A DNA stretch of 64,000 nt. Origin: a virus. The DNA is taken from positions 52,131-116,130 of the IMG/VR virus record IMGVR_UViG_3300032893_000010. One strand, written 5' to 3'. The translations under genes were made by a program, and so were the position numbers. Shown here one piece after another: positions 4,039-44,949 of the stretch. The notes below the pieces were generated by a model. It saw only the letters and a list, made by a program, of their open reading frames with translations, had not been told where the DNA came from and did no database searches. The stretch's first letter is position 1; every line of letters starts with the position of its first letter.

Positions 4039-4343
4039 TGCCTTGCATCAGATGCGACGGGCTTGAAAAAGAAGTAGAGACCGGGTTCTTTGATGAAGTT
4101 CTCTGTACTTTCTGTGGTCAGCATCATCTGAAGTCCACGAATCATTCTGGTCCTTGGAAAGTCTACGTTGTAACAGATTGTGATTGCAGGAATGCTCTTG
4201 CTGACGTAAAAACTGATAAATACAGAAGCAACATAGCAGGTATCACTCATGAATACAGATGCATGAAATGCATGACAAGATATGTATGGTCAGGTTTCAC
4301 AGGCTGGGAACTTTCTCTTGAGCACATCATGGAAATGCTATGA
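4038..4343 (+). CDS. zinc-finger protein
   Basis: About 101 residues with CIRC, CTFC and CMKC knuckles. Of two adjacent ATGs I prefer 4038 because it gives better spacing from AGGAGG at 4029-4034. The stop overlaps the next start (ATGAG). Function unknown. Confidence 0.65.
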   Translation: MPCIRCDGLEKEVETGFFDEVLCTFCGQHHLKSTNHSGPWKVYVVTDCDCRNALADVKTDKYRSNIAGITHEYRCMKCMTRYVWSGFTGWELSLEHIMEML

Positions 4344-4702
4344 GTAAATCAAAAGCTAAGGGAACTGCTGCTGAGACTGCTATTGTCAATTACCTGAACG
4401 AGAGAAAATGGGAAGTAAAACGCAGACCACCTCAGGGAGCTAATGATAAAGGTGACATAGACTGCGGAAACTATCCTTTCATCTTGGAAGTCAAGAACTG
4501 CAAGCAGATGAAGCTGAGTGAATGGGTAGATGAAGCTGAGGTAGAAGCTGGCAGGGCAGCAGTTGACTATCCATGGCTAGACAACCCTCCAGCGGGCATT
4601 GTAGTACATAAAAGAGTCAGGAGAGGCCAGCCTAAAGACTGGTATGTGACCATGAGCGTTGATTCTTTCGTAAGGCTTGTAGAGGCTTGCTGGAAAGAAT
4701 AA
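4340..4702 (+). CDS. Holliday-junction-resolvase-like nuclease
   Basis: 120 residues. GTAAETAIVNYL, KRRPPQGANDKGDID and FILEVKN reproduce the E...D...ExK core of phage resolvase-like PD-(D/E)xK nucleases. It would resolve recombination or packaging intermediates. It is the second nuclease of this fold in the cluster. Confidence 0.75.
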   Translation: MSKSKAKGTAAETAIVNYLNERKWEVKRRPPQGANDKGDIDCGNYPFILEVKNCKQMKLSEWVDEAEVEAGRAAVDYPWLDNPPAGIVVHKRVRRGQPKDWYVTMSVDSFVRLVEACWKE

Positions 4703-5016: not shown

Positions 5017-5292
5017 ATGTCACGTTCAGGAGAATTTGCGGCAGGTGCTAACTCAGGGCCTACAGAGCCTGCATCGTTACAGCAACGGGCGGCAAGGTTC
5101 AACGAGCAGATACCTGGGAAGTTCAAGCCTAATGGCATCAATCAGCAGATAATGCCGTCAGCTGACGGCATGTCATCTAAGGATGCGCAGAGACAGACTC
5201 CGAGTGGCATGCTTCCCGATTTCCTGAATGGTTCATCTCGGAGTACAGTTAATAAGCTTGTGCCTTCATACGGCATGAACCTGGCAATATAG
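5017..5292 (+). CDS. low-complexity protein
   Basis: 91 residues rich in Ser, Gly, Asn and Pro; no recognised domain. It follows the SpoVS-like gene by one base and begins the run of small disordered proteins extending to 9 kb. Confidence 0.55.
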   Translation: MSRSGEFAAGANSGPTEPASLQQRAARFNEQIPGKFKPNGINQQIMPSADGMSSKDAQRQTPSGMLPDFLNGSSRSTVNKLVPSYGMNLAI

Positions 5293-7983: not shown

Positions 7984-8675
7984 TGACTGTTCCCGATTTC
8001 AAGGTTGAAACCAGCCAGGTTATCAAGAAGTCACGTAAGCCAGGTGCCAGGTTCAACGTTTCTGGTAAAGGCCCGCTGCTTGTTGATTCTTTTTCTGATA
8101 AGTCTTCCGGGAAACCTAGATATAGTGTAAGCAGGCACGGAGATACTTTAGGGACTTCTGGGGCGGCATACACACCTGAGCATCGTGGCACGCCTCAGAC
8201 GAGATCAGCAAATGAAAGCACCCAGCCTAAGCAATTCGGAAAGCACAGAGCTTCTGCCGCCGCGAAACCATCATATGATTCTTCCAGGGCTAGAGGTCGT
8301 CACGCTAAAGGGGCTCACGCTAAGGATTACAACTTTGATGAGGATATGAGTAAGTCCAGAGCGAATACTGAGTATTCGGGAGCCCACGCTGAGAGAACGC
8401 CGAAACCTGAGGGTAAGCACGGGAGGGCGTATAATGCCAGTGCTGAGATATCAAGACATCAGGCAGAGAAGAGATCTGGTAAGACTTATATCCCCAAGCA
8501 TACAGCCGAAGGGCAGGCCCAGAGAGCTGAGATAGCAAAGCAGGCAGCAAGACAGGCTTCTATGGGCAAGCTTCATAAAGGTGTCCACTCATCAGTTCAC
8601 AAATTTACTCACGTTATCCATGCAGTTCACGGAAAGCACTGGTCTGAGCACATGAGATTGCAGGAGCAGAAATGA
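7983..8675 (+). CDS. long basic GKH-motif protein
   Basis: 230 residues, the largest of the GKH family. FGKHRASAAA, RGRHAKGAHAKDYN, EGKHGRAYN and KLHKGVHSSVHK recur, and His plus Lys are very frequent near the C-terminus (HVIHAVHGKHWSEHM). Overlaps the next gene by four bases. Confidence 0.55.
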   Translation: MTVPDFKVETSQVIKKSRKPGARFNVSGKGPLLVDSFSDKSSGKPRYSVSRHGDTLGTSGAAYTPEHRGTPQTRSANESTQPKQFGKHRASAAAKPSYDSSRARGRHAKGAHAKDYNFDEDMSKSRANTEYSGAHAERTPKPEGKHGRAYNASAEISRHQAEKRSGKTYIPKHTAEGQAQRAEIAKQAARQASMGKLHKGVHSSVHKFTHVIHAVHGKHWSEHMRLQEQK

Positions 8676-13754: not shown

Positions 13755-13771
13755 GTGGCGCGTGATAATCT
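13743..13771 (+). promoter_or_regulatory. sigma70-like promoter
   Basis: TTGACA at 13743-13748, 17-base spacer, TAATCT at 13766-13771. It overlaps the end of the DnaJ-type gene and would drive the genes from 13796. Confidence 0.6.
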
Positions 13772-13795
13772 CCTTGCATGACACAAGGAGGACAG

Positions 13796-13999
13796 ATGGA
13801 ACTGTCAGACATACCGCAGAAGATCATCGATGGGATTCTCGATTTTACTGATGAAAGGCCACAGTTTACCTCTGTGGCAGTAAGAACAGATGGTATCGGA
13901 GGATGGCATCTTCAGTACTGCAAATCTGTACACGGAGCAGAACAGATCACTGGCGGCCAGAATAATACTCTGGTAATCAATGTTACGGAGGAATCATGA
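13796..13999 (+). CDS. hypothetical protein
   Basis: 67 residues from ATG 13796, chosen for the AAGGAGG at 13784-13790. MELSDIPQKIIDGILDFTDE starts the protein. Overlaps the next gene by four bases. Confidence 0.55.
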   Translation: MELSDIPQKIIDGILDFTDERPQFTSVAVRTDGIGGWHLQYCKSVHGAEQITGGQNNTLVINVTEES

Positions 14000-24001: not shown

Positions 24002-24165
24002 CTAGATGGAAAGCTGAGGTCTCGTATCAAGACCAGTACGGGAAGATAATAGTTGAAACTAAGGAGTATGAAACAGGTAAGAAGCCTAGCAGTTCCGTAG
24101 TGATAAGTGACCTGGTGCCTAGAGGATGTGAAACTGTATCAATTAGCATAGTTAAATCTAAGTGA
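23998..24165 (+). CDS. hypothetical protein (55 aa)
   Basis: Beta-rich, basic (WKAEVSYQDQYGKIIVETKE). Coupled to the membrane gene. Unknown. Confidence 0.55.
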   Translation: MTRWKAEVSYQDQYGKIIVETKEYETGKKPSSSVVISDLVPRGCETVSISIVKSK

Positions 24166-24219
24166 GGAACTGAACGAGTATTTCACGAAATTTCAAACGA
24201 GGAAAATACGAAAAACCAA

Positions 24220-24507
24220 ATGAAGTCCTGGGGAATCACGACGCAGGTAATAGTGACGTTCAATGTAGTGAACATACAACACGCATACATAGTGATGTGT
24301 GAACTTCAGGAACTTCTGGAAGACAATGAATACTATGAGGATGCGATGATGTCTGTAACAGACAGACATCATGATCATGATGAAGGCAGATGTCCGGTAT
24401 GCCTCTGTCCGCAGTCACAACATACATACCGGGCACTAAATAAGACATATTGCCTGTACCATCAGAAAATATGTGAAACTTTGACAAACACTGACAAAAC
24501 ATCATAA
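24220..24507 (+). CDS. His/Cys-rich protein
   Basis: 95 residues, weak GAGG site. DRHHDHDEGRCPVCLCPQSQH and CLYHQKIC suggest a metal site. A start at ATG 24346 is also possible. Coding is likely but the start is uncertain. Confidence 0.45.
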   Translation: MKSWGITTQVIVTFNVVNIQHAYIVMCELQELLEDNEYYEDAMMSVTDRHHDHDEGRCPVCLCPQSQHTYRALNKTYCLYHQKICETLTNTDKTS

Positions 24508-24597
24508 ACTCTGTCATAGCTACATGAAACAGGCAAGCAGGACATAGGCTGCGTCTTGCTCGCAACCATGGGACGTTGGTCCCTAGGCTCATGAGCT

Positions 24598-24686
24598 AGA
24601 CTCACGTGTGAGTCTGCGCAGGTCAAAGCACAAATCAGGGATTTTTCAAGATCTGAGTTGACAACCATGCTGGTGCCTGGTTAACT
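24598..24686 (+). promoter_or_regulatory. promoter with a palindromic operator candidate
   Basis: AGACTCAC-GT-GTGAGTCT at 24598-24615 lies 42 bases upstream of TTGACA (24658-24663), followed by 17 bases and TTAACT (24681-24686). The 24510-24754 gap otherwise holds no gene. Same promoter core as at 16861. Confidence 0.6.
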
Positions 24687-24754
24687 GTAGCTATCGCAAG
24701 GACGACGGGAACAAGATCCCGTGACAGACGATTCCGAAAACGGAGGTAATCAAA

Positions 24755-25315
24755 ATGACTGCTACCATCACGCGGTCCCGTAGGTCTGATGCCCACACCC
24801 CGGTGACTCCTGCGGAGACTCCTGCCGATCGTGCGCCTAGGGTTACGCCTAGCCAGCCTCAGGCCACCGACACACCGACTCAGGGTAACCTGGGGAATAT
24901 GATGTTCTCGGTAGTGACGAGCGAAGTCATCGAACCCAAGCGCGGTCTCGGTCGCGCAAAGGTAGACATCCCTGTTCATATCAAGAACGCTTTTCAGCAC
25001 ATGTTCCTGACGAACCCGTCCGGTGGCTCAGACAAGATGGAGGTTGTTCGCGCCACGATGACCAACAGCGATATCAACCGCTATCTGAAGATGGGTGGCC
25101 TCAAGAAGCTTACGGAAACTCTGCCGTACCCTGATCGCAAGTATGTCAAGTCCAGTGTCGTCACGATTCCTGGCTCCCCCAATCCTCAGAGCGTGGCTAA
25201 GGAGGACGCAGGCAAGCCGGTTAACATTCAGTGGGTCGTTTACCGGCTGTCTGAGGACCAGCTAGCTGAGCGCGAAGGACGCAGGGCCGAACGGCAGGCC
25301 AATCGCACTAGCTAA
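24755..25315 (+). CDS. GC-rich, host-codon-like protein
   Basis: 186 residues behind GGAGG. A disordered Pro/Thr-rich N-terminus leads into an ordered core (RAKVDIPVHIKNAFQHMF; YLKMGGLKKLTETLPYPD). Codons end mostly in C or G, unlike the neighbours, which suggests adaptation for very high expression or recent transfer. It sits alone between a strong promoter and terminator. It may be an abundant early protein; no family recognised. Confidence 0.7.
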   Translation: MTATITRSRRSDAHTPVTPAETPADRAPRVTPSQPQATDTPTQGNLGNMMFSVVTSEVIEPKRGLGRAKVDIPVHIKNAFQHMFLTNPSGGSDKMEVVRATMTNSDINRYLKMGGLKKLTETLPYPDRKYVKSSVVTIPGSPNPQSVAKEDAGKPVNIQWVVYRLSEDQLAEREGRRAERQANRTS

Positions 25316-25332
25316 CCTCACACAGCACCAAG

Positions 25333-25362
25333 TTAGGGGCCGACCTTCCAGTCGGCCCCTAA
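25333..25362 (+). terminator. hairpin terminator
   Basis: TTAGGGGCCGAC and complement with a six-base loop. Directly follows the GC-rich gene. Confidence 0.75.
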
Positions 25363-25461
25363 AGCCGTTTCTAGGGCAATTCCCGGACGAAGTTTGAAAC
25401 GAACATCTCACAAGCTGAAAACTAGGCGTAAACCTGCTCAAATCAGACATAACACGCAGAT

Positions 25462-25498
25462 AGGTCTGACCTGGCCGACTGTCGGCCAGGTCAGACCT
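25462..25498. repeat. 37-bp near-perfect palindrome
   Basis: AGGTCTGACCTGGCCGAC, one base, and its exact complement. No T run follows. May be a bidirectional terminator or a protein-binding or cruciform site. Confidence 0.8.
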
Positions 25499-25502
25499 GT
25501 TT

Positions 25503-25721
25503 ATGCAGGTCAGAGCACGCATGGTCATATACGGCCCTGAGATCAACGCTAAGGCACTCTACATAGCTCTTAGCTGTGATGACCTTAACCCGTACCTGCG
25601 GCATCCCAGGGACACGTACAGAGCCATACAGGACCAATGCAGGCCAGCGCCGCCACCTTGGGAGGCAGGCCAGGAACACCACGACCTGGCTTTATATACA
25701 AGAGATAACAATATCTTCTGA
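25503..25721 (+). CDS. possible small protein
   Basis: 72 residues from ATG 25503 just after the palindrome, without a good ribosome site. ALYIALSCDDLNPYLRHPRD seems coding-like. Low confidence. Confidence 0.35.
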   Translation: MQVRARMVIYGPEINAKALYIALSCDDLNPYLRHPRDTYRAIQDQCRPAPPPWEAGQEHHDLALYTRDNNIF

Positions 25722-25736
25722 TTTACTTCTTTTTTC

Positions 25737-25765
25737 TTGACATGGTGTGCCAGTACAAGAGATAT
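25737..25765 (+). promoter_or_regulatory. possible promoter
   Basis: TTGACA 25737-25742 followed by TGGTGTG, as at 16861, then AGATAT at 17 bases. The -10 is weak. Confidence 0.4.
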
Positions 25766-25861
25766 TGAGCATGCTACATAAAAATTACATCGATTCGTTC
25801 CCGTACTAGTTCAAAACGGACAGAACGGGCGATATGGGCGAATCTGAGCACGGACCTTGAC

Positions 25862-26053
25862 ATGTTAACAGCGGACGGGCCATATGGTGACACGCATAGC
25901 CATATGCGCCTAGATGTACGTACATACATCGTTAATGCTACGATTGAGGACATTTTGCCCATTGTCGGGGTGATGCCAGTAGGTAGGTCCCCACTGGCAT
26001 TGCTCACATTGGACAAAACAGCCAAACCGGACAAGATAGGACAAATCATATGA
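25862..26053 (+). CDS. possible small protein
   Basis: 63 residues; the ATG overlaps a TTGACA, so ATG 25904 may be the true start. ATATGAG at the end couples it to the next gene, which supports it being real. Confidence 0.4.
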   Translation: MLTADGPYGDTHSHMRLDVRTYIVNATIEDILPIVGVMPVGRSPLALLTLDKTAKPDKIGQII

Positions 26054-26211
26054 GATGGAATTTTATTATCAATAACATGATATTCCGCTCAGATGACAAG
26101 GAAGAATGCCGAACGGTAATGAGCATAGCAAGAGAGAATAATCTGCACATTAAGATCATCTCTTCTGAAGAGGCACAGAAGTTGCTTAAAATGGGCTATC
26201 CGGCTCTTTAG
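26050..26211 (+). CDS. hypothetical protein (53 aa)
   Basis: WNFIINNMIFRSDDKEECRT and IKIISSEEAQKLLKMGYP form an alpha/beta-like unit. ATG lies in the previous stop. Confidence 0.55.
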   Translation: MRWNFIINNMIFRSDDKEECRTVMSIARENNLHIKIISSEEAQKLLKMGYPAL

Positions 26212-26288
26212 TACGTATTTAGTCGTATTGACACTCATTACTGACAATACGGCCATGCACGTGCTAAACCGGACAAAAGGGGTTAATC

Positions 26289-26510
26289 ATGACGGACTCG
26301 ACATCTGGCGTTATCCCTGACGAGAACACGCCAGCCGGCACCAAACTACGCAATATCCACACAGAGATAATCGGAAGTCTCACAAGCTACCACAAAGGTT
26401 CAAATCCGGCATATGACTCAGTTGGGTGGGATGCCTTCGGAAAGGAATCTTTCGGTCATCCTGCCTCTTTCCGCATTTATGACCCAGCTTACTACGATGA
26501 CGACAAGTAG
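26289..26510 (+). CDS. mini-gene protein 1
   Basis: 73 residues, AAGGGG before ATG. Ends with many Tyr/Asp (YDPAYYDDDK). First of a string of single small genes, each preceded by its own 60-100-base intergenic region. Confidence 0.6.
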   Translation: MTDSTSGVIPDENTPAGTKLRNIHTEIIGSLTSYHKGSNPAYDSVGWDAFGKESFGHPASFRIYDPAYYDDDK

Positions 26511-26605
26511 GCACTAGTCGTCAGTTTTAGGGTCATACTGGACAATCAGGCCAGTGTGGCTCAATTCTGGCGAATAGGACATAACAACGCAGGAGAGGAC
26601 AAACC

Positions 26606-26809
26606 TTGACAAACTGGATTATCACGGCCAAACTGCCTGAGGATGGCAAAAACGCCCAGCCATTCACGATGTACGTAGAAGCGGACAATCTGGTCAAAGC
26701 CGCACAAAAGGCACAAAGCTACTGCAAGCGTGCCAACTTCGACATTCTCAGTCTTTCGAGGATAGACGGGGACATCCCGGCCAAAGCCGATAACATAACT
26801 CGTAAGTAG
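26606..26809 (+). CDS. mini-gene protein 2
   Basis: 67 residues, TTG start behind GGAGAGGACA. WIITAKLPEDGKNAQPF looks like a small ordered domain. A GGTCATAC element lies 74 bases upstream. Confidence 0.55.
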   Translation: MTNWIITAKLPEDGKNAQPFTMYVEADNLVKAAQKAQSYCKRANFDILSLSRIDGDIPAKADNITRK

Positions 26810-26831
26810 GCAAGAGAGGACAAAACAGACA

Positions 26832-27104
26832 ATGACTAGCATACGGCATGAAGACATGATGAACTTGCCGGAAATACGAGATAATGTGAAATTCACCACA
26901 AACATGTCCACATCGGGCAGTGGCGTGTATCTCGCGTTTTATCAGTCAAAAACCGACACAGATGGCAACGAGGTAAGTTCGTCGCATATCATGCTATTTC
27001 CGGAACAACTGGACAAAATCATGGAATGGCTACCTAAAGCCTACGAAAGGGCCAAGAAGAGCGATAGTTTCATAAAGGCAGTCAAGGCAGGACATCTAAC
27101 CTGA
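26832..27104 (+). CDS. mini-gene protein 3
   Basis: 90 residues; SGVYLAFYQSKTDTDGNEVS and a helix near the end. AGAGGAC precedes ATG. Unknown. Confidence 0.6.
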   Translation: MTSIRHEDMMNLPEIRDNVKFTTNMSTSGSGVYLAFYQSKTDTDGNEVSSSHIMLFPEQLDKIMEWLPKAYERAKKSDSFIKAVKAGHLT

Positions 27105-27209
27105 TAGCTCGTATTTGCTGGTATATGGTCATATAGCGGGCTAGATACCAGCATTTATGTACATATCAGTATAGATGTGTGCAAACCGGGCAAACAAGGA
27201 GGAAACATC

Positions 27210-27359
27210 ATGTCTCTGACAGACCTTCGCAAAATGTCCACTACTGCTCTTCTGGCCATAATCTACCAGGAAGAGCACACGGGTATCGTCGTCTACTCAG
27301 GCGATGCCGAAGATATCGTCCGGTCCCGTTTCAGCTCATTCAAGTCAGCTAGGGGTTAG
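27210..27359 (+). CDS. mini-gene protein 4
   Basis: 49 residues from ATG 27210 behind AGGAGG. Starts MSLTDLRKMSTTALLAI. GGTCATATAG lies about 80 bases upstream. Confidence 0.55.
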   Translation: MSLTDLRKMSTTALLAIIYQEEHTGIVVYSGDAEDIVRSRFSSFKSARG

Positions 27360-27457
27360 TCGCCATACAGCACGTGTCAGGTCATATCACTGCTCATTAC
27401 CAGTGATATGGCCTAATCCGTACTAGATGCGGCAGATCAAGGCAAAAGGGACATAAT

Positions 27458-27604
27458 ATGACTTCTGGAGGCACGGCAGTCATCTCGGGCATAGAGTACG
27501 ATATCTGCCATACGTGCGGTTACCCTAAGAAAGTGACCGATAAGGACGATATACACATCGGTCACGTGGCAGACGGGTATCTCCTCCTGCCCTACTTCAG
27601 ATAG
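27458..27604 (+). CDS. mini-gene protein 5, zinc ribbon
   Basis: 48 residues with CHTCGYPKKV. GGGACATA precedes ATG, as for other mini-genes. Upstream GGTCATATCAC and its complement flank the promoter region. Confidence 0.55.
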   Translation: MTSGGTAVISGIEYDICHTCGYPKKVTDKDDIHIGHVADGYLLLPYFR

Positions 27605-27659
27605 CCCGTAACAAGATCAAGTATCCCGCCCAACCGACTACACCAACCTGACCCCCAAC

Positions 27660-27696
27660 TTGGCTTTGCGTGGCCCTGAGGGCCACGCAAAGCCAA
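27660..27696. repeat. 37-bp near-perfect palindrome
   Basis: TTGGCTTTGCGTGGCCCT, one base, exact complement. Same 18-1-18 design as the palindrome at 25462 but a different sequence. Apparent antisense ORFs here are by-products. Confidence 0.8.
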
Positions 27697-27744
27697 CTGT
27701 GTTCCGATGCCCCCTCCGGGGCCAGCCAGGGAAACGGACATAAC

Positions 27745-27942
27745 ATGACAAAACAGGAAACAACAGGCATGCTGGTGCTTCTGGGCATAGACGAGTACGT
27801 AGCAGCATGCATGGTAATATGCGCGCGCAATGAGGGTAAGTACATAGCAAAAGTCCTGAATAACGGCAATTACCGGACATACACGATACATCACGGCATG
27901 ATCGGCAATATCACCCATACTTACTCAATCGAGATAAGTTAG
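27745..27942 (+). CDS. mini-gene protein 6
   Basis: 65 residues from ATG 27745 behind GGACATAAC. GMLVLLGIDEYVAACMVI is helical; the second half is beta-like (YIAKVLNNGNYRTYTI). Confidence 0.55.
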   Translation: MTKQETTGMLVLLGIDEYVAACMVICARNEGKYIAKVLNNGNYRTYTIHHGMIGNITHTYSIEIS

Positions 27943-28008
27943 GACTAATCACCCCTGGTGCGGCCTAAACTACTCATCTAGGTCGTATGATCACGAAAAG
28001 GACATATC

Positions 28009-28086
28009 ATGCTAGTGTGCCCTAAGAAAGGCAAGTGCCCCATCTGCGGCCAAGAACACAACAAGTCAGATAATAACACAAACTAG
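28009..28086 (+). CDS. mini-gene protein 7, zinc knuckle (25 aa)
   Basis: CPKKGKCPICGQEH gives a C-x5-C-x2-C-x3-H set. GGACATATC precedes ATG. Very short but well placed. Confidence 0.45.
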   Translation: MLVCPKKGKCPICGQEHNKSDNNTN

Positions 28087-28134
28087 ACATCTCGGGTCAT
28101 ATCAGTACGTACAAGACAAGAAAGGGTAAACAGC

Positions 28135-28272
28135 ATGGAATGCACTCATTGCGGGCATACGCACATAAATCCCGCAGAAGGCACAATCGACATAAACAAG
28201 TGCTTCATGCTCATACAAGACGAGGGAGAACAATTCCCTCGTCCCTGCCCATGTCAGGATTTTGACCACTAA
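28135..28272 (+). CDS. mini-gene protein 8, zinc-binding (45 aa)
   Basis: CTHCGHTH, an internal Cys and CPCQDFDH. GGTCATATCAG lies 41 bases upstream. No clear AGGAGG; AAGGGT is closest. Confidence 0.5.
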   Translation: MECTHCGHTHINPAEGTIDINKCFMLIQDEGEQFPRPCPCQDFDH

Positions 28273-28346
28273 ACTGAATAAATCGGGTCATACTGAGACA
28301 ATCAATACCAAAGCGCTCAGTGTGGCTCAATCTATCCAGTTCAAGT

Positions 28347-28535
28347 AGTCAGTACTCATAAGGAGACAATAGCCTAATTCGCATCAAACAGGCAGTTAGT
28401 AGTCAAAAGGTAAAACTGGACTAATTCCTCTCATAACGTGAGCTAGTACTCATAAGCAATGAAACAGCCTAATTCCCTCTCAAACCAGTAGTTAGTACTC
28501 ATAAGCGATAAACAGGCTAATTCCTGGTCAGAACC
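28347..28535. repeat. four tandem ~47-bp direct repeats
   Basis: Units begin at 28347, 28394, 28441 and 28490. Each has an AGTTAGTACTCATAAG-like block and, about 32 bases on, CTAATTC. The array fills the gene-free stretch 28273-28594 near the strand switch. Iterons of an origin or operators are the likeliest roles. Confidence 0.8.
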
Positions 28536-28594
28536 TACCAAAAGATATCAAATCATCACAATCAGTATCAAAGTACTTGAAAACAGGAGAAATA

Positions 28595-28717
28595 ATGACA
28601 AATCGTAATGAATCAGACACTAAGAACAATATATCTGAGACCCCCATCATTAAGTCAAAACGGATAAAACGGACAGGGCCAGGAAAATATTGTGTATATT
28701 CAGGTTTATATCTGTGA
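28595..28717 (+). CDS. small basic protein (40 aa)
   Basis: Behind CAGGAGAAATA. SDTKNNISETPIIKSKRIKR; basic second half. Its end overlaps the terminator at 28681. Unknown. Confidence 0.5.
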   Translation: MTNRNESDTKNNISETPIIKSKRIKRTGPGKYCVYSGLYL

Positions 28718-28744
28718 CAGTATCATTGCTTACTGTATTTTCCT
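28681..28744. terminator. convergent terminator region
   Basis: AGGAAAATA and TATTTTCCT enclose a region with an inner ACAGTA/TACTGT hairpin. It separates plus-strand genes from the minus-strand block. Confidence 0.6.
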
Positions 28745-28811
28745 GACCCTTTTCATCTTATCCTGATTACAGTTTACCGGGTATCCGGTTACAGATGTAT
28801 GAACTTTCTTG

Positions 28812-28994
28812 TTATAGCTGCCTTTCTGCGTTTACCCTGCTGGATACCGTGGTCATGATTATCCTGTTACCGTCTGATTCCAGGCTTTCTATCCACTGGT
28901 TTTCCAGTCCTAGTAGTTGCATCAGGTCTTTATGCGAGATGATATGCGTATACCTCATTGTTGTCTTTATTACTGGCATCTCAGTAGTCGCCAC
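28812..28994 (-). CDS. hypothetical protein, minus strand
   Basis: 60 residues from GTG 28994, with AAGGAG almost touching it. HIISHKDLMQLLGLENQWIE appears coding, more so than the plus-strand frame opposite. It lies beyond the 29027 terminator, so it may have its own promoter. Confidence 0.4.
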   Translation of the reverse strand: MATTEMPVIKTTMRYTHIISHKDLMQLLGLENQWIESLESDGNRIIMTTVSSRVNAERQL

Positions 28995-29026
28995 TCCTTG
29001 TTTTTGATCACTCTCTGTATATAAAA

Positions 29027-29065
29027 ATAGGTGAAAACAGGTCGAAGTACAGCCTTTTCACCTAT
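29027..29065 (-). terminator. intrinsic terminator of the minus-strand block
   Basis: An 11-bp stem (ATAGGTGAAAA) followed on the minus strand by TTTTTAT. Ends transcription from the right. Confidence 0.8.
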
Positions 29066-29219
29066 ATGAATGAACGATTTTCGTGACTTAGAGTGATTTT
29101 ATCTCCCTTTTCGCCTCTTCCCGGTGCAGTAAGGGGCACCGCAGTCTTCACTGCATATGCAGCTTCCTCTTACGGGGTTCTTCCATCTGCATGACGGGGC
29201 AGTTGTTGTTCACGATATA

Positions 29220-29315
29220 TCACTCCCATCCGGAGAACATGGTTACCATGACCAGGTATATTATGTATCCCAGCAGTCCGGCACCTGCGAGGGCGGCTAT
29301 TATCTCATATAGCAT
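29220..29315 (-). CDS. membrane peptide (31 aa)
   Basis: One span (IIAALAGAGLLGYIIYLVMV). GGAGG is upstream on the minus strand; ATG is at 29315. It overlaps the 3' end of the next gene. The 29072-29219 stretch to its left holds only a Cys-rich frame without a start. Confidence 0.5.
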   Translation of the reverse strand: MLYEIIAALAGAGLLGYIIYLVMVTMFSGWE

Positions 29316-29472
29316 TCATCCTCCTGCTTATGCTCCTGTTCTCTGCATCGCACCACTTGTTATGTGCCTTGATAGTACATGGGGTCACCAGGTACTTGGC
29401 TTCGGGGAACAGGTAGTGATTCCAGTATCTTATGTGCTTAAGGTAGTTTTTCCTTGCTTTCCTTCTGCTCAC
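29305..29472 (-). CDS. small basic protein (55 aa)
   Basis: GTG 29472 follows AGAGGA. KARKNYLKHIRYWNHYLFPE and CTIKAHNKWCDAEN. Overlaps the upstream gene by four bases. Confidence 0.55.
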   Translation of the reverse strand: MSRRKARKNYLKHIRYWNHYLFPEAKYLVTPCTIKAHNKWCDAENRSISRRMNAI

Positions 29473-29687
29473 TGTATTCCTCTGAGTCTCTTGCGTCTCT
29501 TTTCATGATTTTCCGTCCATGAGAGATGGAGATCACCGACAAGATCACAATTCTCGTGCCACATATCGTTTTCGCCAGGTTTGAGATACATCAGTTTAAT
29601 TAAACCTGATTCAAGGTGACTGCTTAGGATTTCTATCTCAGGGTTAGTCAGAACAGTCAGCCACGGATATTCGTCGTTTCCCATCAT
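29469..29687 (-). CDS. hypothetical protein (72 aa)
   Basis: WLTVLTNPEIEILSSHLESG then a His/Trp-rich end. Starts in the ATGA overlap of the upstream gene. Unknown. Confidence 0.6.
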   Translation of the reverse strand: MMGNDEYPWLTVLTNPEIEILSSHLESGLIKLMYLKPGENDMWHENCDLVGDLHLSWTENHEKRRKRLRGIQ

Positions 29688-32780: not shown

Positions 32781-32875
32781 ATCATATACCCGCCGCCGCC
32801 CTGGTGTCAAGACCCTGGAGAGATTTAGATTTTTCCGTCGTCCCTCTTGACAGCCGGGCACCCCCATGGTAACGT
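32781..32875. promoter_or_regulatory. divergent promoters
   Basis: Minus strand: TTGACA (32805-32810) and TATGAT (32781-32786), 18-base spacer. Plus strand: TTGACA (32847-32852), 17 bases, TAACGT (32870-32875). They fire the minus-strand block and the genes from 32967. The AT-rich 32876-32966 has no gene. Confidence 0.65.
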
Positions 32876-32966
32876 CTTACCACAGTGATACCGGCGGTTA
32901 TATACGTCGTATATTCAGATATTGATATTCAGTTACTACGATATAACTACATGATAAGGAATAATA

Positions 32967-33047
32967 ATGAGTAATAAGAAAGCAGGACCTGTTATCTTCG
33001 CAGTAATGCTGGTACTACTGCTAGTACTAACCTGCCTATTCAGTTAG
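32967..33047 (+). CDS. membrane peptide (26 aa)
   Basis: AAGGAATAATA then ATG; FAVMLVLLLVLTCLFS forms one span. First gene from the plus-strand promoter. Confidence 0.5.
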   Translation: MSNKKAGPVIFAVMLVLLLVLTCLFS

Positions 33048-33056
33048 GAAATAAAT

Positions 33057-33266
33057 ATGGTATTCGTACTTGAGTTCATACTAGCTCCTATACTATGGTT
33101 GTTCAAGAAGTTTCCTAAAGCTGCACTGGGAATACTGATGATAGTAGCTTTCGGTGGCACTGGCGGTATCTTGATGGTGCATGATATCGGGGCGAATATA
33201 GTAAGAGACGTGTGCATAGCTATCTCAGGTCATCCTGGCTGCATTCACATGCCTTTGAGGAAGTAG
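33057..33266 (+). CDS. membrane protein, two spans
   Basis: 69 residues; VFVLEFILAPILWLFKKF and AALGILMIVAFGGTGGILMV. AAATA precedes ATG with little Shine-Dalgarno. Unknown. Confidence 0.55.
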   Translation: MVFVLEFILAPILWLFKKFPKAALGILMIVAFGGTGGILMVHDIGANIVRDVCIAISGHPGCIHMPLRK

Positions 33267-33274
33267 GAGGAAAC

Positions 33275-33508
33275 ATGCCTTATTGCCGTGCTCATGCAGA
33301 TCTCGTCACAGGAGGAGAACTGAATTGCCATCTTGATGAAGGTCATGAAACTCTCCTGGAGTTTCATTACGATAAGATTGAGGATAAAGAGTGGAGAGAG
33401 GGAAGAGTTCCTGCTCCCGTTCCTTACACTCCTACTGGTCCAATACCTAAGATTAAGGTTGAGAAAACCTGGAAGCTTGCTGGTCAGGCAGATAAAGTCA
33501 CTTTGTGA
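33275..33508 (+). CDS. Cys/His-containing protein
   Basis: 77 residues from ATG 33275 behind AGGAGG. MPYCRAHADLVTGGELNCHL and HETLLEFHYD resemble small zinc-binding phage proteins whose core reads C...H...C...H. Confidence 0.6.
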   Translation: MPYCRAHADLVTGGELNCHLDEGHETLLEFHYDKIEDKEWREGRVPAPVPYTPTGPIPKIKVEKTWKLAGQADKVTL

Positions 33509-33515
33509 GGCGAAT

Positions 33516-33707
33516 ATGCTTAATCCGTTTAAGAAAAAGTGGGAAGTGTACGGATATACCGGAGCTGTAGCTAACAGCAAAGGGGAGGTTTACGGGAGGT
33601 TCAGGAGATATCAGAACGCCATTTCCTTTGCAAAGGAAATGAATGCTTTCAGTTCTGATTTCTTCGAGGGCAGGCATTTCATGGTAAGGAGGATACATGG
33701 TGCATAA
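33516..33707 (+). CDS. hypothetical protein (63 aa)
   Basis: NPFKKKWEVYGYTGAVANSK; a beta-rich half then SFAKEMNAFSSDFFEGRHFM. Overlaps the HAD gene by 11 bases. Confidence 0.55.
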   Translation: MLNPFKKKWEVYGYTGAVANSKGEVYGRFRRYQNAISFAKEMNAFSSDFFEGRHFMVRRIHGA

Positions 33708-34167
33708 AAGACCTGAAGCTTTCATCTGCGACATCGATGGCACTATCGCAGATCACGGAGATGAGGAAAGCGGTCTCATCAGAGGTCACTATGAGTATGA
33801 CAAGGTGAAGTTCGACCGTCCGAAGCCTGAGGTTATCAGGGTCGTCAGGATTCTGTCGAAGGAACTTCAGCCTATCTTCGTATCAGGAAGGATGGATGAA
33901 TCTGCTAATCCGGTGAGGATCGATACAGTTCACTGGATCAAGAGTAATGTGTGGCCGTACGACATCAATCCTCAGTGGCCTTTGTTCATGAGAGCTGACG
34001 GTGATTACAGAGCAGATTACGTGATAAAGGAAGAGATCTTCACTAAGCTGATTGAGCCTCGGTGGAATGTGAGGTTCGCTATTGATGACAGGCTTCAGGT
34101 ATGCCGGATGTGGCATAGGATAGGAGTCCCTGTGTTCAGGGTGGGAGATCCTGATGCAGTCTTTTAA
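33697..34167 (+). CDS. polynucleotide 3'-phosphatase-like HAD protein
   Basis: 156 residues. FICDIDGTIAD (DxDGT nucleophile), IFVSGRMD, MRADGDYRADYVIKEE and VRFAIDDRLQVCRMWHRIGV match the HAD phosphatase half of T4 polynucleotide kinase. No kinase P-loop is present. It should remove 3' phosphates from nucleic acids, which in T4 serves repair of cleaved tRNA. No RNA ligase is recognised nearby. Confidence 0.82.
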   Translation: MVHKRPEAFICDIDGTIADHGDEESGLIRGHYEYDKVKFDRPKPEVIRVVRILSKELQPIFVSGRMDESANPVRIDTVHWIKSNVWPYDINPQWPLFMRADGDYRADYVIKEEIFTKLIEPRWNVRFAIDDRLQVCRMWHRIGVPVFRVGDPDAVF

Positions 34168-34318
34168 GTCAGTTAAGTTATCTCTGCTTCAGGTCAGGTC
34201 TGACCTGAATGACATAATAGAGGAGCTGAGCAGTATAGACAAGTACGACCTGTCTGACGCAGAGATATACGTATCTGATGCTGTTGACATGATAGAAATG
34301 GCACTTGACGTGCTTTAA
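34154..34318 (+). CDS. helical protein (54 aa)
   Basis: KLSLLQVRSDLNDIIEELSS and DAVDMIEMALDVL form two helices. ATG lies inside the HAD gene's end. Unknown. Confidence 0.55.
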   Translation: MQSFKSVKLSLLQVRSDLNDIIEELSSIDKYDLSDAEIYVSDAVDMIEMALDVL

Positions 34319-34337
34319 CCTGGCATAAGGAGGGAGA

Positions 34338-34742
34338 ATGAGGAAGCTGGGAGGGTGGCTCATGCTCATATTCATAGGATACGGGTTCGCCCAGAATCCT
34401 GGAGCGTTCCACCAGCTCATGAGCAGTATGGGAAAAGCCGCTAAATCTCATGGCATATCAGAAGCATATGTGACGATCTCTTCTTTCCAGCAGTGTGTTA
34501 TCTCCAGGGAATCTGGGGGTGACTCTACTGTGTGGAACAATCAGGGTTATCCCTATTGGGGCTTGTATCAGTTCGGTAAGCCTTTGTGGGTGGGTAATGG
34601 GGGTAACCCTGATGACTGGGGTAAATCATCTACGTCAGCAGCAGAGCAGACAAGGATATTCGATAACGTAATGAGTCATTACGGAGGGTGCAAGAACTGG
34701 ACTCCTTCTGATGGCTGTCCAGATCCTTCGAATGGATGCTAA
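34338..34742 (+). CDS. secreted Rpf/transglycosylase-like enzyme
   Basis: 134 residues. Signal anchor (WLMLIFIGYGFAQNPG), then CVISRESGGDSTVWNNQGYP and GLYQFGKPLW, matching the lysozyme-like Rpf/transglycosylase fold with a catalytic Glu in RESGG. A conserved Cys near the C-terminus could pair with the first. It probably cleaves peptidoglycan. Confidence 0.75.
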   Translation: MRKLGGWLMLIFIGYGFAQNPGAFHQLMSSMGKAAKSHGISEAYVTISSFQQCVISRESGGDSTVWNNQGYPYWGLYQFGKPLWVGNGGNPDDWGKSSTSAAEQTRIFDNVMSHYGGCKNWTPSDGCPDPSNGC

Positions 34743-34744
34743 GA

Positions 34745-34791
34745 CTCCTATGCTATGCTAGTATCAGATTTCAAATGGCATAGCATAGGAG
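34745..34791 (+). promoter_or_regulatory. RBS-sequestering hairpin
   Basis: CTCCTATGCTATGC (34745-34758) pairs perfectly over 14 bases with GCATAGCATAGGAG (34778-34791); the 3' arm contains AGGAG five bases before ATG 34796. Loop of 19 bases. The mRNA would be translated poorly until the hairpin opens. Confidence 0.85.
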
Positions 34792-34795
34792 AAAC

Positions 34796-35602
34796 ATGAC
34801 AGCAGAACACATTCAGTACATACCTGAGATCGTAATACCGGAGATGAGGCTAGGCCGTCATATTCACTTAGAAGCGAATAGGATGGCTGTTCCTCATGCT
34901 GGTCCGGCTCAGGCAGTAACAAGCAAGACATGGGCAAGAGATATCCCTATCTTAAACCAGGGCAATGTAGGCTCATGCACAGGTAATGCGATGGATGGAG
35001 CGCTGGGAACAACACCAGTATTCCAGACTTTGCCATCAAACCATCCTGCATTAGATGAAAACGAAGCACTTAACCTTTATTCAGCAGCGGAAGTTATCGA
35101 CGGTGACGGTCCTTATCCTCCTAACGATAACGGTTCTACAGGTCCGTCAGTAGCTCAGGCGGCTCAGAATGCCGGACTTATCAAGGGATATAACCATTAC
35201 AAAGACTTAAATTCTACGTTACAGTCGCTGATGAACGGCCCAGTAATAATAGGAATGAACTGGTATTCATCGTTTGATACACCTGCTGCGGATGGAACGG
35301 TTGCCATCACAGCAGATGCTTATGTAAGAGGCGGTCACGAGGTTCTTGCTCGTGTGGTTGATGTAACTAACCAGATGATCGGTTTTGATAATTCGTGGGG
35401 AACAAGCTGGGGAGTTAACGGTTCTTTCAAGATGAGTTATGCGACTCTGACTCAGCTTCTCTCGGAAGGAGGAGATTGTACTTCTTTCATTCCTCTAGCA
35501 GCACCATCACCGACTCCTAATCCTCCGAAGCCTAAGCCAAAGCCTAATAAGCCATCGTGGTTCGATGAGTTCATCAAATGGATTGAATCGTTTTTCGCTT
35601 AA
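34796..35602 (+). CDS. papain-like cysteine protease
   Basis: 268 residues. Catalytic-type Cys61 in PILNQGNVGSCTGNAMDGAL, His181 in RGGHEVLA and Asn199 in FDNSWGTSWG match the C1A triad. There is no signal peptide. After residue 235 a Pro/Lys linker leads to a short aromatic amphipathic end (WFDEFIKWIESFFA), which may touch membrane. Translation appears controlled by the hairpin just upstream. Substrate unknown. Confidence 0.82.
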   Translation: MTAEHIQYIPEIVIPEMRLGRHIHLEANRMAVPHAGPAQAVTSKTWARDIPILNQGNVGSCTGNAMDGALGTTPVFQTLPSNHPALDENEALNLYSAAEVIDGDGPYPPNDNGSTGPSVAQAAQNAGLIKGYNHYKDLNSTLQSLMNGPVIIGMNWYSSFDTPAADGTVAITADAYVRGGHEVLARVVDVTNQMIGFDNSWGTSWGVNGSFKMSYATLTQLLSEGGDCTSFIPLAAPSPTPNPPKPKPKPNKPSWFDEFIKWIESFFA

Positions 35603-35664
35603 GATTATCAACTCAGTCAAGCCCTGGTATGAAAGCCAAGGCTTCACTTTTAAGGAGGGTATAC

Positions 35665-35712
35665 ATGAGTGTTATGGCAGAACCAGAACCGGTAAGTAAG
35701 ACTTATACTTAA
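35665..35712 (+). CDS. possible 15-aa peptide
   Basis: AAGGAGGG precedes ATG; MSVMAEPEPVSKTYT. May be a leader for the next gene: TTAAGGAGG recurs at its end. Confidence 0.35.
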   Translation: MSVMAEPEPVSKTYT

Positions 35713-35722
35713 GGAGGAGTAA

Positions 35723-36559
35723 ATGAAGTTTCAGGCGAGTAATACAACAGCCATAAACCCCATTATGGCTAGAGAAATTCTCTCAAATGCTATTAGGAAC
35801 AGACCAATCAAGAAGAAGAAGGTTGAGGAATTTCGTTCATTTATGGAAGGCAGGAAGTTCGGAACCTCTCTGCTCGTTTTCAATAGTTCGGATCAGCTAG
35901 TATCTGGTTTTCATAGGATGACTGCTTTGTCGGAACTTCCAGAGGATGTTTTCGTAAACTTTGCTATCGCTTATGACGATGATGACCTGGCTAGCATCAG
36001 GCAGAATTCCGGTTCTCCAGAAACAGCAAGAGAGCAGGCTAAGAGGAATGAGCTTCCATACGCAAACGAAAGGGCTGCGATTGCCAGAAAGCTCATCATC
36101 CTAGAACATAAGCTAGAGGGTAGGACTTATACCCCAGGCGCAGAGGAAATTTACACTGTAAGCCGTGATGAACCTTATATGGAAAGAGCTATTGAACATC
36201 TTAATGACTTCGATGGTCTTATTCCTTCACCTTCTATAGCATCTTATATAATTCTGGCAAGAGAGAACGAGGAAAAGACCGATCTTTTCTATTCTAGCTT
36301 GTCTACTGGTGCTGGTTTGGAGCTAGGTTCCCCAATTCTTGCAGTTAAAAACGGCCTGCCCGGAGTTAGGACAAAGTTGCAAGGGACGTATAGGGACGCT
36401 CAATGCGGACAAATGATACTTAGGGGTTTCAGTGATTGGGTTTCTTCTAAGCAAGGACCAACCAGATATAATGTTAAAGATGGTGTTTCCATTGCTGACG
36501 AAGTGAAGTTGCTGAGTAAGGTACTGAGTGTTCCGTGGACTAATATCTTAAGACCCTGA
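35723..36559 (+). CDS. ParB-like domain protein
   Basis: 278 residues. NRPIKKKKVEEFRSFMEGRK, LLVFNSSDQLVSGFHRMTAL gives the ParB N-terminal/Srx pattern with a GxHR motif; a long helical second half follows. A family of phage proteins with this layout lacks the HTH of plasmid ParB. Unknown partner. Confidence 0.7.
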   Translation: MKFQASNTTAINPIMAREILSNAIRNRPIKKKKVEEFRSFMEGRKFGTSLLVFNSSDQLVSGFHRMTALSELPEDVFVNFAIAYDDDDLASIRQNSGSPETAREQAKRNELPYANERAAIARKLIILEHKLEGRTYTPGAEEIYTVSRDEPYMERAIEHLNDFDGLIPSPSIASYIILARENEEKTDLFYSSLSTGAGLELGSPILAVKNGLPGVRTKLQGTYRDAQCGQMILRGFSDWVSSKQGPTRYNVKDGVSIADEVKLLSKVLSVPWTNILRP

Positions 36560-44059: not shown

Positions 44060-44530
44060 GTGGTTAAGTATATTTTCGTAGACGTTGATGGGGTAGTAAA
44101 TCCTGTTGTCTTAAGAGAAGGAGGGGAGAAATTGTTGGCCCTTCCACATGGAACGGACACACAAGGCTACTACCTGCGCTTACATAAAGATTACGGCAGG
44201 TGGCTAAAGCAGCTATCAGAAGATACTGAATCTTTCCTGGTATGGGGTTCAACCTGGCAAATACATGCTAACAGATGGGTGGGAGAATATCTTGAGTTAC
44301 CTCATTTGTCACATCTTGACCTTTCTCAGGGAAGGTTTTCTGAGTCTTTAGGTTCTATTAAGGCTGATGCTGCTAATAAATATGCGGATGGCAACAGGTT
44401 CGTCTTCTTTGATGATGAGCCTGATCTAGGTAGCCGCCTGGCTGATAATGGCTTGCATATCCGTATAGATTACAGGTCAGGACTAGAGGAATATCATATA
44501 GAAGAGGCAAGAAACTACCTGCTTTCATGA
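44060..44530 (+). CDS. HAD-family hydrolase-like protein
   Basis: 156 residues from GTG. FVDVDGVVNP (DxDGV), FLVWGSTWQ (motif II Ser/Thr region) and FVFFDDEPD (acidic motif IV) fit the HAD fold. Substrate unknown. GAGGA upstream. Confidence 0.72.
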   Translation: MVKYIFVDVDGVVNPVVLREGGEKLLALPHGTDTQGYYLRLHKDYGRWLKQLSEDTESFLVWGSTWQIHANRWVGEYLELPHLSHLDLSQGRFSESLGSIKADAANKYADGNRFVFFDDEPDLGSRLADNGLHIRIDYRSGLEEYHIEEARNYLLS

Positions 44531-44549
44531 TAGAATGATAAGGTAAATT
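44531..44549 (+). promoter_or_regulatory. late-type promoter P3 (TAGAAT-N6-GTAAAT)
   Basis: TAGAAT 44531-44536, GATAAG, GTAAAT. Identical spacing to P1; gene start 26 bases on. Confidence 0.6.
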
Positions 44550-44574
44550 ACTTTCATGAAAGGAGCCATTTCTA

Positions 44575-44949
44575 ATGGCAGCAGGACTATCAATTTACTA
44601 CCTGTACGGTTACCCAGGCAATGTGGCATCAAGTTCTCTGGTAGATTCTTCTTCGTTTACCTACACTTCTGGTGTTTCCACAACACATGCTGGTGCTTAC
44701 ATAGCTGGTTATCTTGACGGTGAGAACAGAGCTAAGATGTTCTACACAGATGGTTCGTCTATCGCTCTTCCGACTCTGGTATCAGTTACTCAGGTGTCTA
44801 TGACAGATGCTTCTGGCACATCTAAGACTGGCGGATACTATGTAGTTCTTTCATTTGCAGCAGGTTCACCGGATGCTACATCAGCAAACTCAGAGATTTA
44901 CCTTGATCAGAATGGTCTGCTTATCGTAGCTGGAACGGCTTACGGATAA
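44575..44949 (+). CDS. structural-like protein, paralog 1
   Basis: 124 residues. LPTLVSVTQVSMTDASG and IYLDQNGLLIVAGT align with the protein at 47330 (LPKLVTITQVS; MSALLIIAST). Ser/Thr/Tyr-rich beta character and a late-type promoter suggest a virion decoration or fibre protein. Confidence 0.6.
   Translation: MAAGLSIYYLYGYPGNVASSSLVDSSSFTYTSGVSTTHAGAYIAGYLDGENRAKMFYTDGSSIALPTLVSVTQVSMTDASGTSKTGGYYVVLSFAAGSPDATSANSEIYLDQNGLLIVAGTAYG

What the first reader, a model, noticed from the sequence alone, without database searches (positions are those of the whole stretch)
34745..34796. Fourteen-base perfect hairpin hides the ribosome site of the papain-like protease
CTCCTATGCTATGC pairs with GCATAGCATAGGAG, which contains AGGAG. 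Both the length and perfection go beyond chance. The protease may be toxic early and released by temperature, an RNA or protein activator, or RNase cutting. The repeated ATGCT core in the 5' arm might also bind a protein.
Basis: partly seen in the sequence, partly recalled or inferred. Interest (0 to 1): 0.7.

Follow-up and report, generated by a model that had tools for sequence, protein, structure and literature searches.

The report
Hairpin gates a phage protease gene
A strong RNA hairpin between two genes of a phage hides the ribosome landing site of a papain-like protease, most likely so that the protease is made only when the cell-wall enzyme gene just before it is being translated; this is a clean new example of a known kind of control.

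Summary
CTCCTATGCTATGC (34745-34758) pairs perfectly with GCATAGCATAGGAG (34778-34791), extends to 16 pairs, and buries the Shine-Dalgarno AGGAG (34787-34791), 4 nt before the ATG (34796) of a papain-family protease. Opening that site costs 12.3 kcal/mol, the most of 91 candidate genes in the 116-kb virus record (median 3.5). Random leaders give even a 10-bp stem on the SD at only 3.5e-5. It is not a terminator, not a thermometer (SD still paired at 60-70 C) and not an Rfam family.

A ribosome stopping there covers the arm, and the cost falls to 2.5 kcal/mol. Translational coupling by RNA unfolding is the best explanation (about 0.5). A T4 gene e-like internal promoter is second. In other phages the same protease gene is coupled to its upstream gene by a 4-nt overlap, or has its SD hidden by different hairpins, but most homologues are not hidden, so this is lineage-specific. 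New member of a known kind. No close relative was found to test covariation of this hairpin.

The parts
34338..34742 (+). Upstream gene, 134 aa, hydrophobic N-terminus and lysozyme/transglycosylase-like domain; own SD GGAGG; stop TAA at 34740-34742
   Evidence: ORF; PF06737 E 7e-4 but below the curated cut-off, 20.7 against 27 bits
34745..34758 (+). 5' arm of hairpin (anti-SD CTCCT at 34745-34749), starts 2 nt after the upstream stop
34759..34777 (+). Apical part: two further pairs (34759-34760 with 34776-34777) and a 15-nt loop
34778..34791 (+). 3' arm of hairpin; SD AGGAG at 34787-34791 at the base of the stem
34796..35602 (+). Papain-like cysteine peptidase, 268 aa, Cys61/His181/Asn199 conserved; start ATG 34796, 4 nt after the SD
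   Evidence: PF00112 23.1 bits, cut-off 20.7; PHROG 16701 E 7e-43; alignment with 21 homologues, start agrees with L001
34755..34799 (+). Possible 14-codon mini-ORF through the hairpin in the upstream gene's frame; its TGA overlaps the peptidase ATG (ATGA). No SD; this kind of in-frame overlap is seen in 4 of 30 spaced pairs of the record, so not significant

Best explanation
The hairpin is an intercistronic gate for translational coupling. On the polycistronic mRNA it forms as soon as it is made and keeps 30S subunits off the AGGAG of the peptidase. Each ribosome that finishes the lysozyme-like gene stops at TAA 34740-34742, with its leading edge over about 12 nt beyond the stop, i.e. over most of the 5' arm; the base of the stem, where the SD lies, is thereby opened and the peptidase can be initiated (or the same ribosome moves on and reinitiates). 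The peptidase is thus made only from mRNA on which the upstream cell-wall enzyme is being translated, and in proportion to it. Shown: sequence, gene order, stop codon position. Computed: the helix and the energies with and without the 5' arm. Inferred: that the two genes share an mRNA, that the terminating ribosome opens the stem in vivo, and that balanced dosage of two wall-active enzymes is the purpose.
For: SD opening costs 12.3 kcal/mol, the highest of 91 candidate genes in the record; it falls to 2.5 if RNA up to 34754 is made unavailable, as a ribosome on the TAA would do; among 54 adjacent same-strand pairs this is again the most closed SD, and the terminating-ribosome model opens it. 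All genes from about 33.06 to 36.56 kb run the same way and no promoter-like or terminator-like site on the + strand lies between the two genes. In cultured actinophages the same peptidase gene starts inside the stop of the gene before it (4-nt overlap) in Mufasa8, GMA2, Lilbeanie, BlueNGold, Sixama, Aleemily and Funsized, the classic coupling arrangement. In Wilnyevirus and Wakandavirus the anti-SD strand lies in the last codons of the upstream gene and hides the peptidase SD (8.8-10.0 kcal/mol, at or near the top of local genes). Precedents in PMC12548453: f1 VII/IX, MS2 coat/lysis, and E. coli rpmI-rplT with +52 nt spacing against 53 nt here.
Against: No DNA-level relative keeps the hairpin, so covariation cannot be tested. 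Most homologues from viral contigs do not hide their SD. A gap of 53 nt is long for reinitiation, and strong structure right after a stop codon lowered coupling in a random library cited in PMC12548453. The stem may refold faster than a 30S can bind. The upstream genes in the cultured phages are not recognisably homologous to the one here. Shared transcription was not shown.
Confidence: 0.5

Rival explanations
1. Stage switch like T4 gene e: long transcripts from upstream carry the whole hairpin and are silent, while a late promoter in or next to the 5' arm gives short mRNAs that lack the arm and are translated.
For: A transcript starting at 34755 or later has an SD opening cost of only 1.2-3.5 kcal/mol. 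The T4 e, soc, 49 and I-TevI cases are closed in a comparable way and e is opened by late promoters next to the start (PMC3014915); e is a lysis gene. TATGCT, TATGCT and TAGTAT at 34749-34764 fit a bare TAnnnT -10 element.
Against: No sigma-70-like promoter on the + strand in 32800-36000, although TTGACA is enriched in this phage's intergenic DNA. TAnnnT is too loose to count. If the upstream gene is translated on the long mRNA, its ribosomes would open the gate anyway.
Confidence: 0.2
2. A trans-acting factor (phage or host protein, or small RNA) binds the loop or stem and opens or locks the hairpin.
For: A 15-nt loop and an unusually stable stem could serve as a binding site. A different group of phages has a conserved two-hairpin leader in front of the same gene, which suggests that factor-controlled versions may exist.
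Against: No Rfam family; the arm is not repeated elsewhere in the window; the conserved leader of the other phages is absent here.
Confidence: 0.12
3. The stem is a processing site: a double-strand RNase cuts it and frees the SD, or the stem protects the 3' part of the mRNA.
For: Intercistronic position; phages such as T7 process mRNA at hairpins between genes (own knowledge).
Against: A perfect 14-16-bp stem without an internal loop is short for RNase III (own knowledge), and cutting in the 3' arm would damage the leader. Not tested.
Confidence: 0.08
4. RNA thermometer.
For: SD in a stem.
Against: SD paired 98% at 37 C, 92% at 60 C, 88% at 70 C. Thermometers use weak, imperfect helices (own knowledge).
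Confidence: 0.02
5. No regulatory role: a chance or relic inverted repeat, with the peptidase expressed weakly by default.
For: Not conserved in homologues; other perfect hairpins without a role in initiation exist in the record.
Against: Random leaders give such a stem on the SD with probability far below 3.5e-5 per gene, and a helix this long would decay without selection.
Confidence: 0.08

Closest known systems
Translational coupling by RNA unfolding (E. coli rpmI-rplT, phage f1 VII/IX, MS2 coat/lysis; PMC12548453)
   Same: Co-directional neighbours; downstream SD closed by structure; the opposing strand lies in or right after the upstream coding region; 53-nt spacing against +52 in rpmI-rplT
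   Different: Here one local perfect stem starts 2 nt after the stop codon; dependence on upstream translation has not been measured
T4 gene e (lysozyme), soc, 49, I-TevI leaders (PMC3014915)
   Same: SD of a probable cell-wall or lysis gene in a stem that needs the upstream part of the transcript
   Different: No recognisable promoter in or after the 5' arm; an upstream gene ends right at the stem
Cluster K mycobacteriophage SAS/ESAS (PMC3203893)
   Same: Inverted repeats next to start codons; the string ATAGGAG is shared
   Different: SAS/ESAS are multi-copy; here there is a single copy, the SD is inside the arm, and the SAS consensus is not enriched
mobE hairpin of phage Aeh1 (Gibb and Edgell 2009, title only, cited in PMC3014915)
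   Same: A phage RNA hairpin that sequesters a ribosome binding site
   Different: Unrelated gene; the paper was not available to read

Membership tests
Translational coupling by RNA unfolding | Adjacent co-directional genes with a short gap | tested here: met
   34338-34742 and 34796-35602, gap 53 nt
Translational coupling by RNA unfolding | Downstream initiation site closed by RNA structure | tested here: met
   Opening energy 12.3 kcal/mol, rank 1 of 91; computed, not probed
Translational coupling by RNA unfolding | Structure disrupted by a ribosome on the upstream gene | tested here: met
   Geometry (TAA 2 nt before the arm) and 12.3 to 2.5 kcal/mol when RNA up to 34754 is covered; model only
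Translational coupling by RNA unfolding | Downstream translation depends on upstream translation | not testable with these tools
   Needs a reporter
T4 gene e-type stage switch | SD sequestered in long transcripts, free without the 5' arm | tested here: met
T4 gene e-type stage switch | Late promoter within or just after the 5' arm | tested here: inconclusive
   No sigma-70-like site; this phage's late promoters are unknown
RNA thermometer | SD freed within the physiological temperature range | tested here: not met
Intrinsic terminator | U-tract after the stem | tested here: not met
   AAACATGA follows; TCTTAGCA on the other strand
SAS/ESAS of Cluster K | Multi-copy 13-bp GGGATAGGAGCCC before starts | tested here: not met
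   13 matches with up to 3 mismatches, 15.1 expected
Known Rfam RNA family | Covariance model match above the gathering score | tested here: not met
   Only tRNAs match in the window
Papain family C1 (the gene product) | Profile match and catalytic Cys, His, Asn | tested here: met
   PF00112 23.1 bits against cut-off 20.7; C61 invariant, H181 and N199 in at least 90%; PDB profile match to 3ois, E 3.6e-9

The most novel reading that the evidence does not exclude
The papain-like peptidase of actinophage-type viruses is a dose-critical gene whose translation has been put under cis control several times independently: by this intercistronic hairpin, by anti-SD codons at the end of the upstream gene (Wilnyevirus, Wakandavirus), by 4-nt stop-start overlap (lysis cassettes), and by a conserved two-hairpin leader in a group of soil phages.
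Probability: 0.2. Interest if true: 0.5.

Novelty: new member of a known kind. Interest (0 to 1): 0.35.

Why it matters
It is a very clear natural coupling gate: one perfect stem, the SD at its base and a stop codon 2 nt from its foot. That makes the RNA-unfolding model of coupling easy to test with a handful of mutations. If expression follows the prediction, it also suggests that the little-studied papain-like proteases of actinophages must be dosed carefully, perhaps as lysis factors.

Tried and rejected
Thermometer. Terminator or promoter. Rfam RNA. Multi-copy operator or SAS/ESAS element. Search for the 3' arm plus G in 2.9 million viral contigs: 14 scattered hits, not followed up. Conservation at the peptidase gene in 45 viral loci: not found. 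A general tendency of homologues to hide the SD: not found, only some lineages do. Relatives of the upstream gene and of the next gene in viral contigs: none. Relatives of the peptidase in 84,980 genomes by conserved peptides: none. Homology of the upstream gene with the coupled genes of cultured phages: none recognisable. A 19/21-nt match between the 5' arm region and the Wakandavirus leader (0 of 2000 shuffles), but the two phages share no other gene in that region, so it was not used as evidence. Mini-ORF/ATGA overlap: seen in 4 of 30 pairs, not significant.

Full report
What is there. The inverted repeat is exactly as described. Folded as RNA it makes a 16-pair stem with a 15-nt loop, -25.2 kcal/mol at 37 C; the 151-nt region folds with z = -2.55. 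AGGAG (34787-34791) is the base of the 3' arm and the ATG at 34796 starts a 268-aa protein with a papain-family domain (PF00112, 23.1 bits, cut-off 20.7; PHROG 16701). The catalytic Cys, His and Asn are conserved across 22 relatives and the best solved relative is a cysteine protease, 3ois. The start codon is supported by the homologue L001, whose start lies in nearly the same place.

More than chance. In the 116-kb virus record that contains the window (window = 52131-116130), this is the only perfect stem of 11 bp or more that ends in an SD before a start. The cost of opening the SD, 12.3 kcal/mol, is the highest of 91 candidate genes (median 3.5), and 1 of 1000 shuffles reaches it. Random leaders with a fixed AGGAG give a 10-bp perfect stem on the SD at 3.5e-5 and no 12-bp stem in 200,000. 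Gene calls for these rankings are my own simple ones, so ranks are approximate.

What it is not. There is no U-tract on either strand and no promoter-like site nearby on the + strand, no Rfam family, no multi-copy element, and the SD stays paired far above any ordinary living temperature.

How it most likely works. The gene before it (34338-34742; N-terminal hydrophobic stretch, lysozyme-like domain by a sub-threshold Pfam match) ends with TAA at 34740-34742, and the 5' arm begins at 34745. A ribosome with this stop codon in its A site covers roughly 12 nt beyond it (established knowledge). Removing RNA up to 34754 from pairing lowers the SD opening cost from 12.3 to 2.5 kcal/mol. The SD is at the foot of the stem, which is the part that such a ribosome opens first. 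This is the geometry of translational coupling by RNA unfolding, reviewed in PMC12548453, where E. coli rpmI-rplT has +52 nt spacing; here it is 53. That the ribosome really opens the stem, and that a single mRNA carries both genes, is inferred.

Comparison with relatives. No database phage is similar at the DNA level and the closest homologue in viral contigs is 70% identical in protein without the hairpin. Across homologues the SD is not generally hidden. Three other arrangements stand out. First, in lysis cassettes of Gordonia and Arthrobacter phages the protease start overlaps the upstream stop by 4 nt (Mufasa8, GMA2, Lilbeanie, BlueNGold, Sixama, Aleemily), and also in Funsized (starts). 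Second, in Wilnyevirus and Wakandavirus the last codons of an 80-81-aa upstream gene pair with the protease SD, with opening costs of 8.8-10.0 kcal/mol. Third, in five soil phages a conserved leader with an SD-hiding hairpin precedes the gene, with both-sided changes in 4 of 9 pairs. The first two are coupling arrangements. The third mostly lies well after the upstream stop and may work differently.

Rivals. A T4 gene e-like switch (PMC3014915) would use the same hairpin, with a promoter in the 5' arm. TAnnnT motifs are there, but nothing that resembles a full promoter, although TTGACA is enriched in the phage's intergenic DNA. It cannot be excluded because the phage's late promoters are unknown. 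A binding factor or RNase processing has no positive evidence.

Side results. The leader of the third group recurs in the same phages before glycosyltransferase-like genes and, in related records, before portal genes. Its first helix is 98.8% paired over 10 sequences with compensatory changes, against 21-48% for slid controls. Its outer strand is shared with the SD hairpin, so the two look mutually exclusive. It gave no Rfam match and is not in the window phage. The gene identities 'glycosyltransferase-like' and 'portal' are my reading of the translations, not profile matches. It deserves its own study.

Verdict. Real and probably functional; a new member of a known kind. Interest 0.35.

Noticed in passing
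L003:5891-5950, L037:2327-2389 and 5123-5185, L038:5908-5969 and 8114-8175, L085:2587-2647 and 4335-4398, L133:4576-4636(-), L122:2515-2575(-), L127:2157-2217(-), L033:7602-7663, L013:7270-7329: Recurrent leader RNA in soil phages: hairpin [CC|GG]CUGCGGCC..GGGAGCCAG[GG|CC] followed at once by a hairpin that hides the SD, before papain-like peptidase and glycosyltransferase-like genes, with the first hairpin also before portal-like genes. The two hairpins share a strand, with compensatory changes; no Rfam match. Candidate new translational switch.
   Followed up: partly
L037:2412-3011 and beyond: The peptidase sequence breaks off after NWYD and continues CLVPSVRVLTYDLRWVPVEKLEVGDQLIGFDE, which looks like the start of an intein.
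   Followed up: no
window 13768-13796: A second, shorter SD-hiding hairpin (CTCCTTG..CAAGGAG) before a 67-aa ORF; opening cost 10.6 kcal/mol, second highest in the record.
   Followed up: partly
window 44519-44575: A hairpin with 10 of 11 pairs and AAGGAG in its 3' arm; the TGA of the upstream ORF (44528-44530) lies at the end of the 5' arm. Opening cost only 5.0 kcal/mol.
   Followed up: partly
window 34113-34126: GCATAGGATAGGAG inside the polynucleotide-kinase-like gene differs from the hairpin's 3' arm by one base and could pair with the 5' arm; probably chance.
   Followed up: no
window 24002-29683: About 5.7 kb without a gene call by my simple caller, with two perfect 17-18-bp hairpins with 1-3-nt loops (25462-25498, 27660-27696) that have no T-run.
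   Followed up: no
window 36817-57621: 29 tRNA genes on the + strand spread over about 21 kb, starting just after the peptidase operon; in Shaeky, Sycamore, BillNye and Wakanda the same peptidase also lies next to tRNA genes.
   Followed up: no
window 34796-35602: The peptidase family appears virus-specific: conserved peptides gave no relatives in 84,980 bacterial and archaeal genomes.
   Followed up: partly
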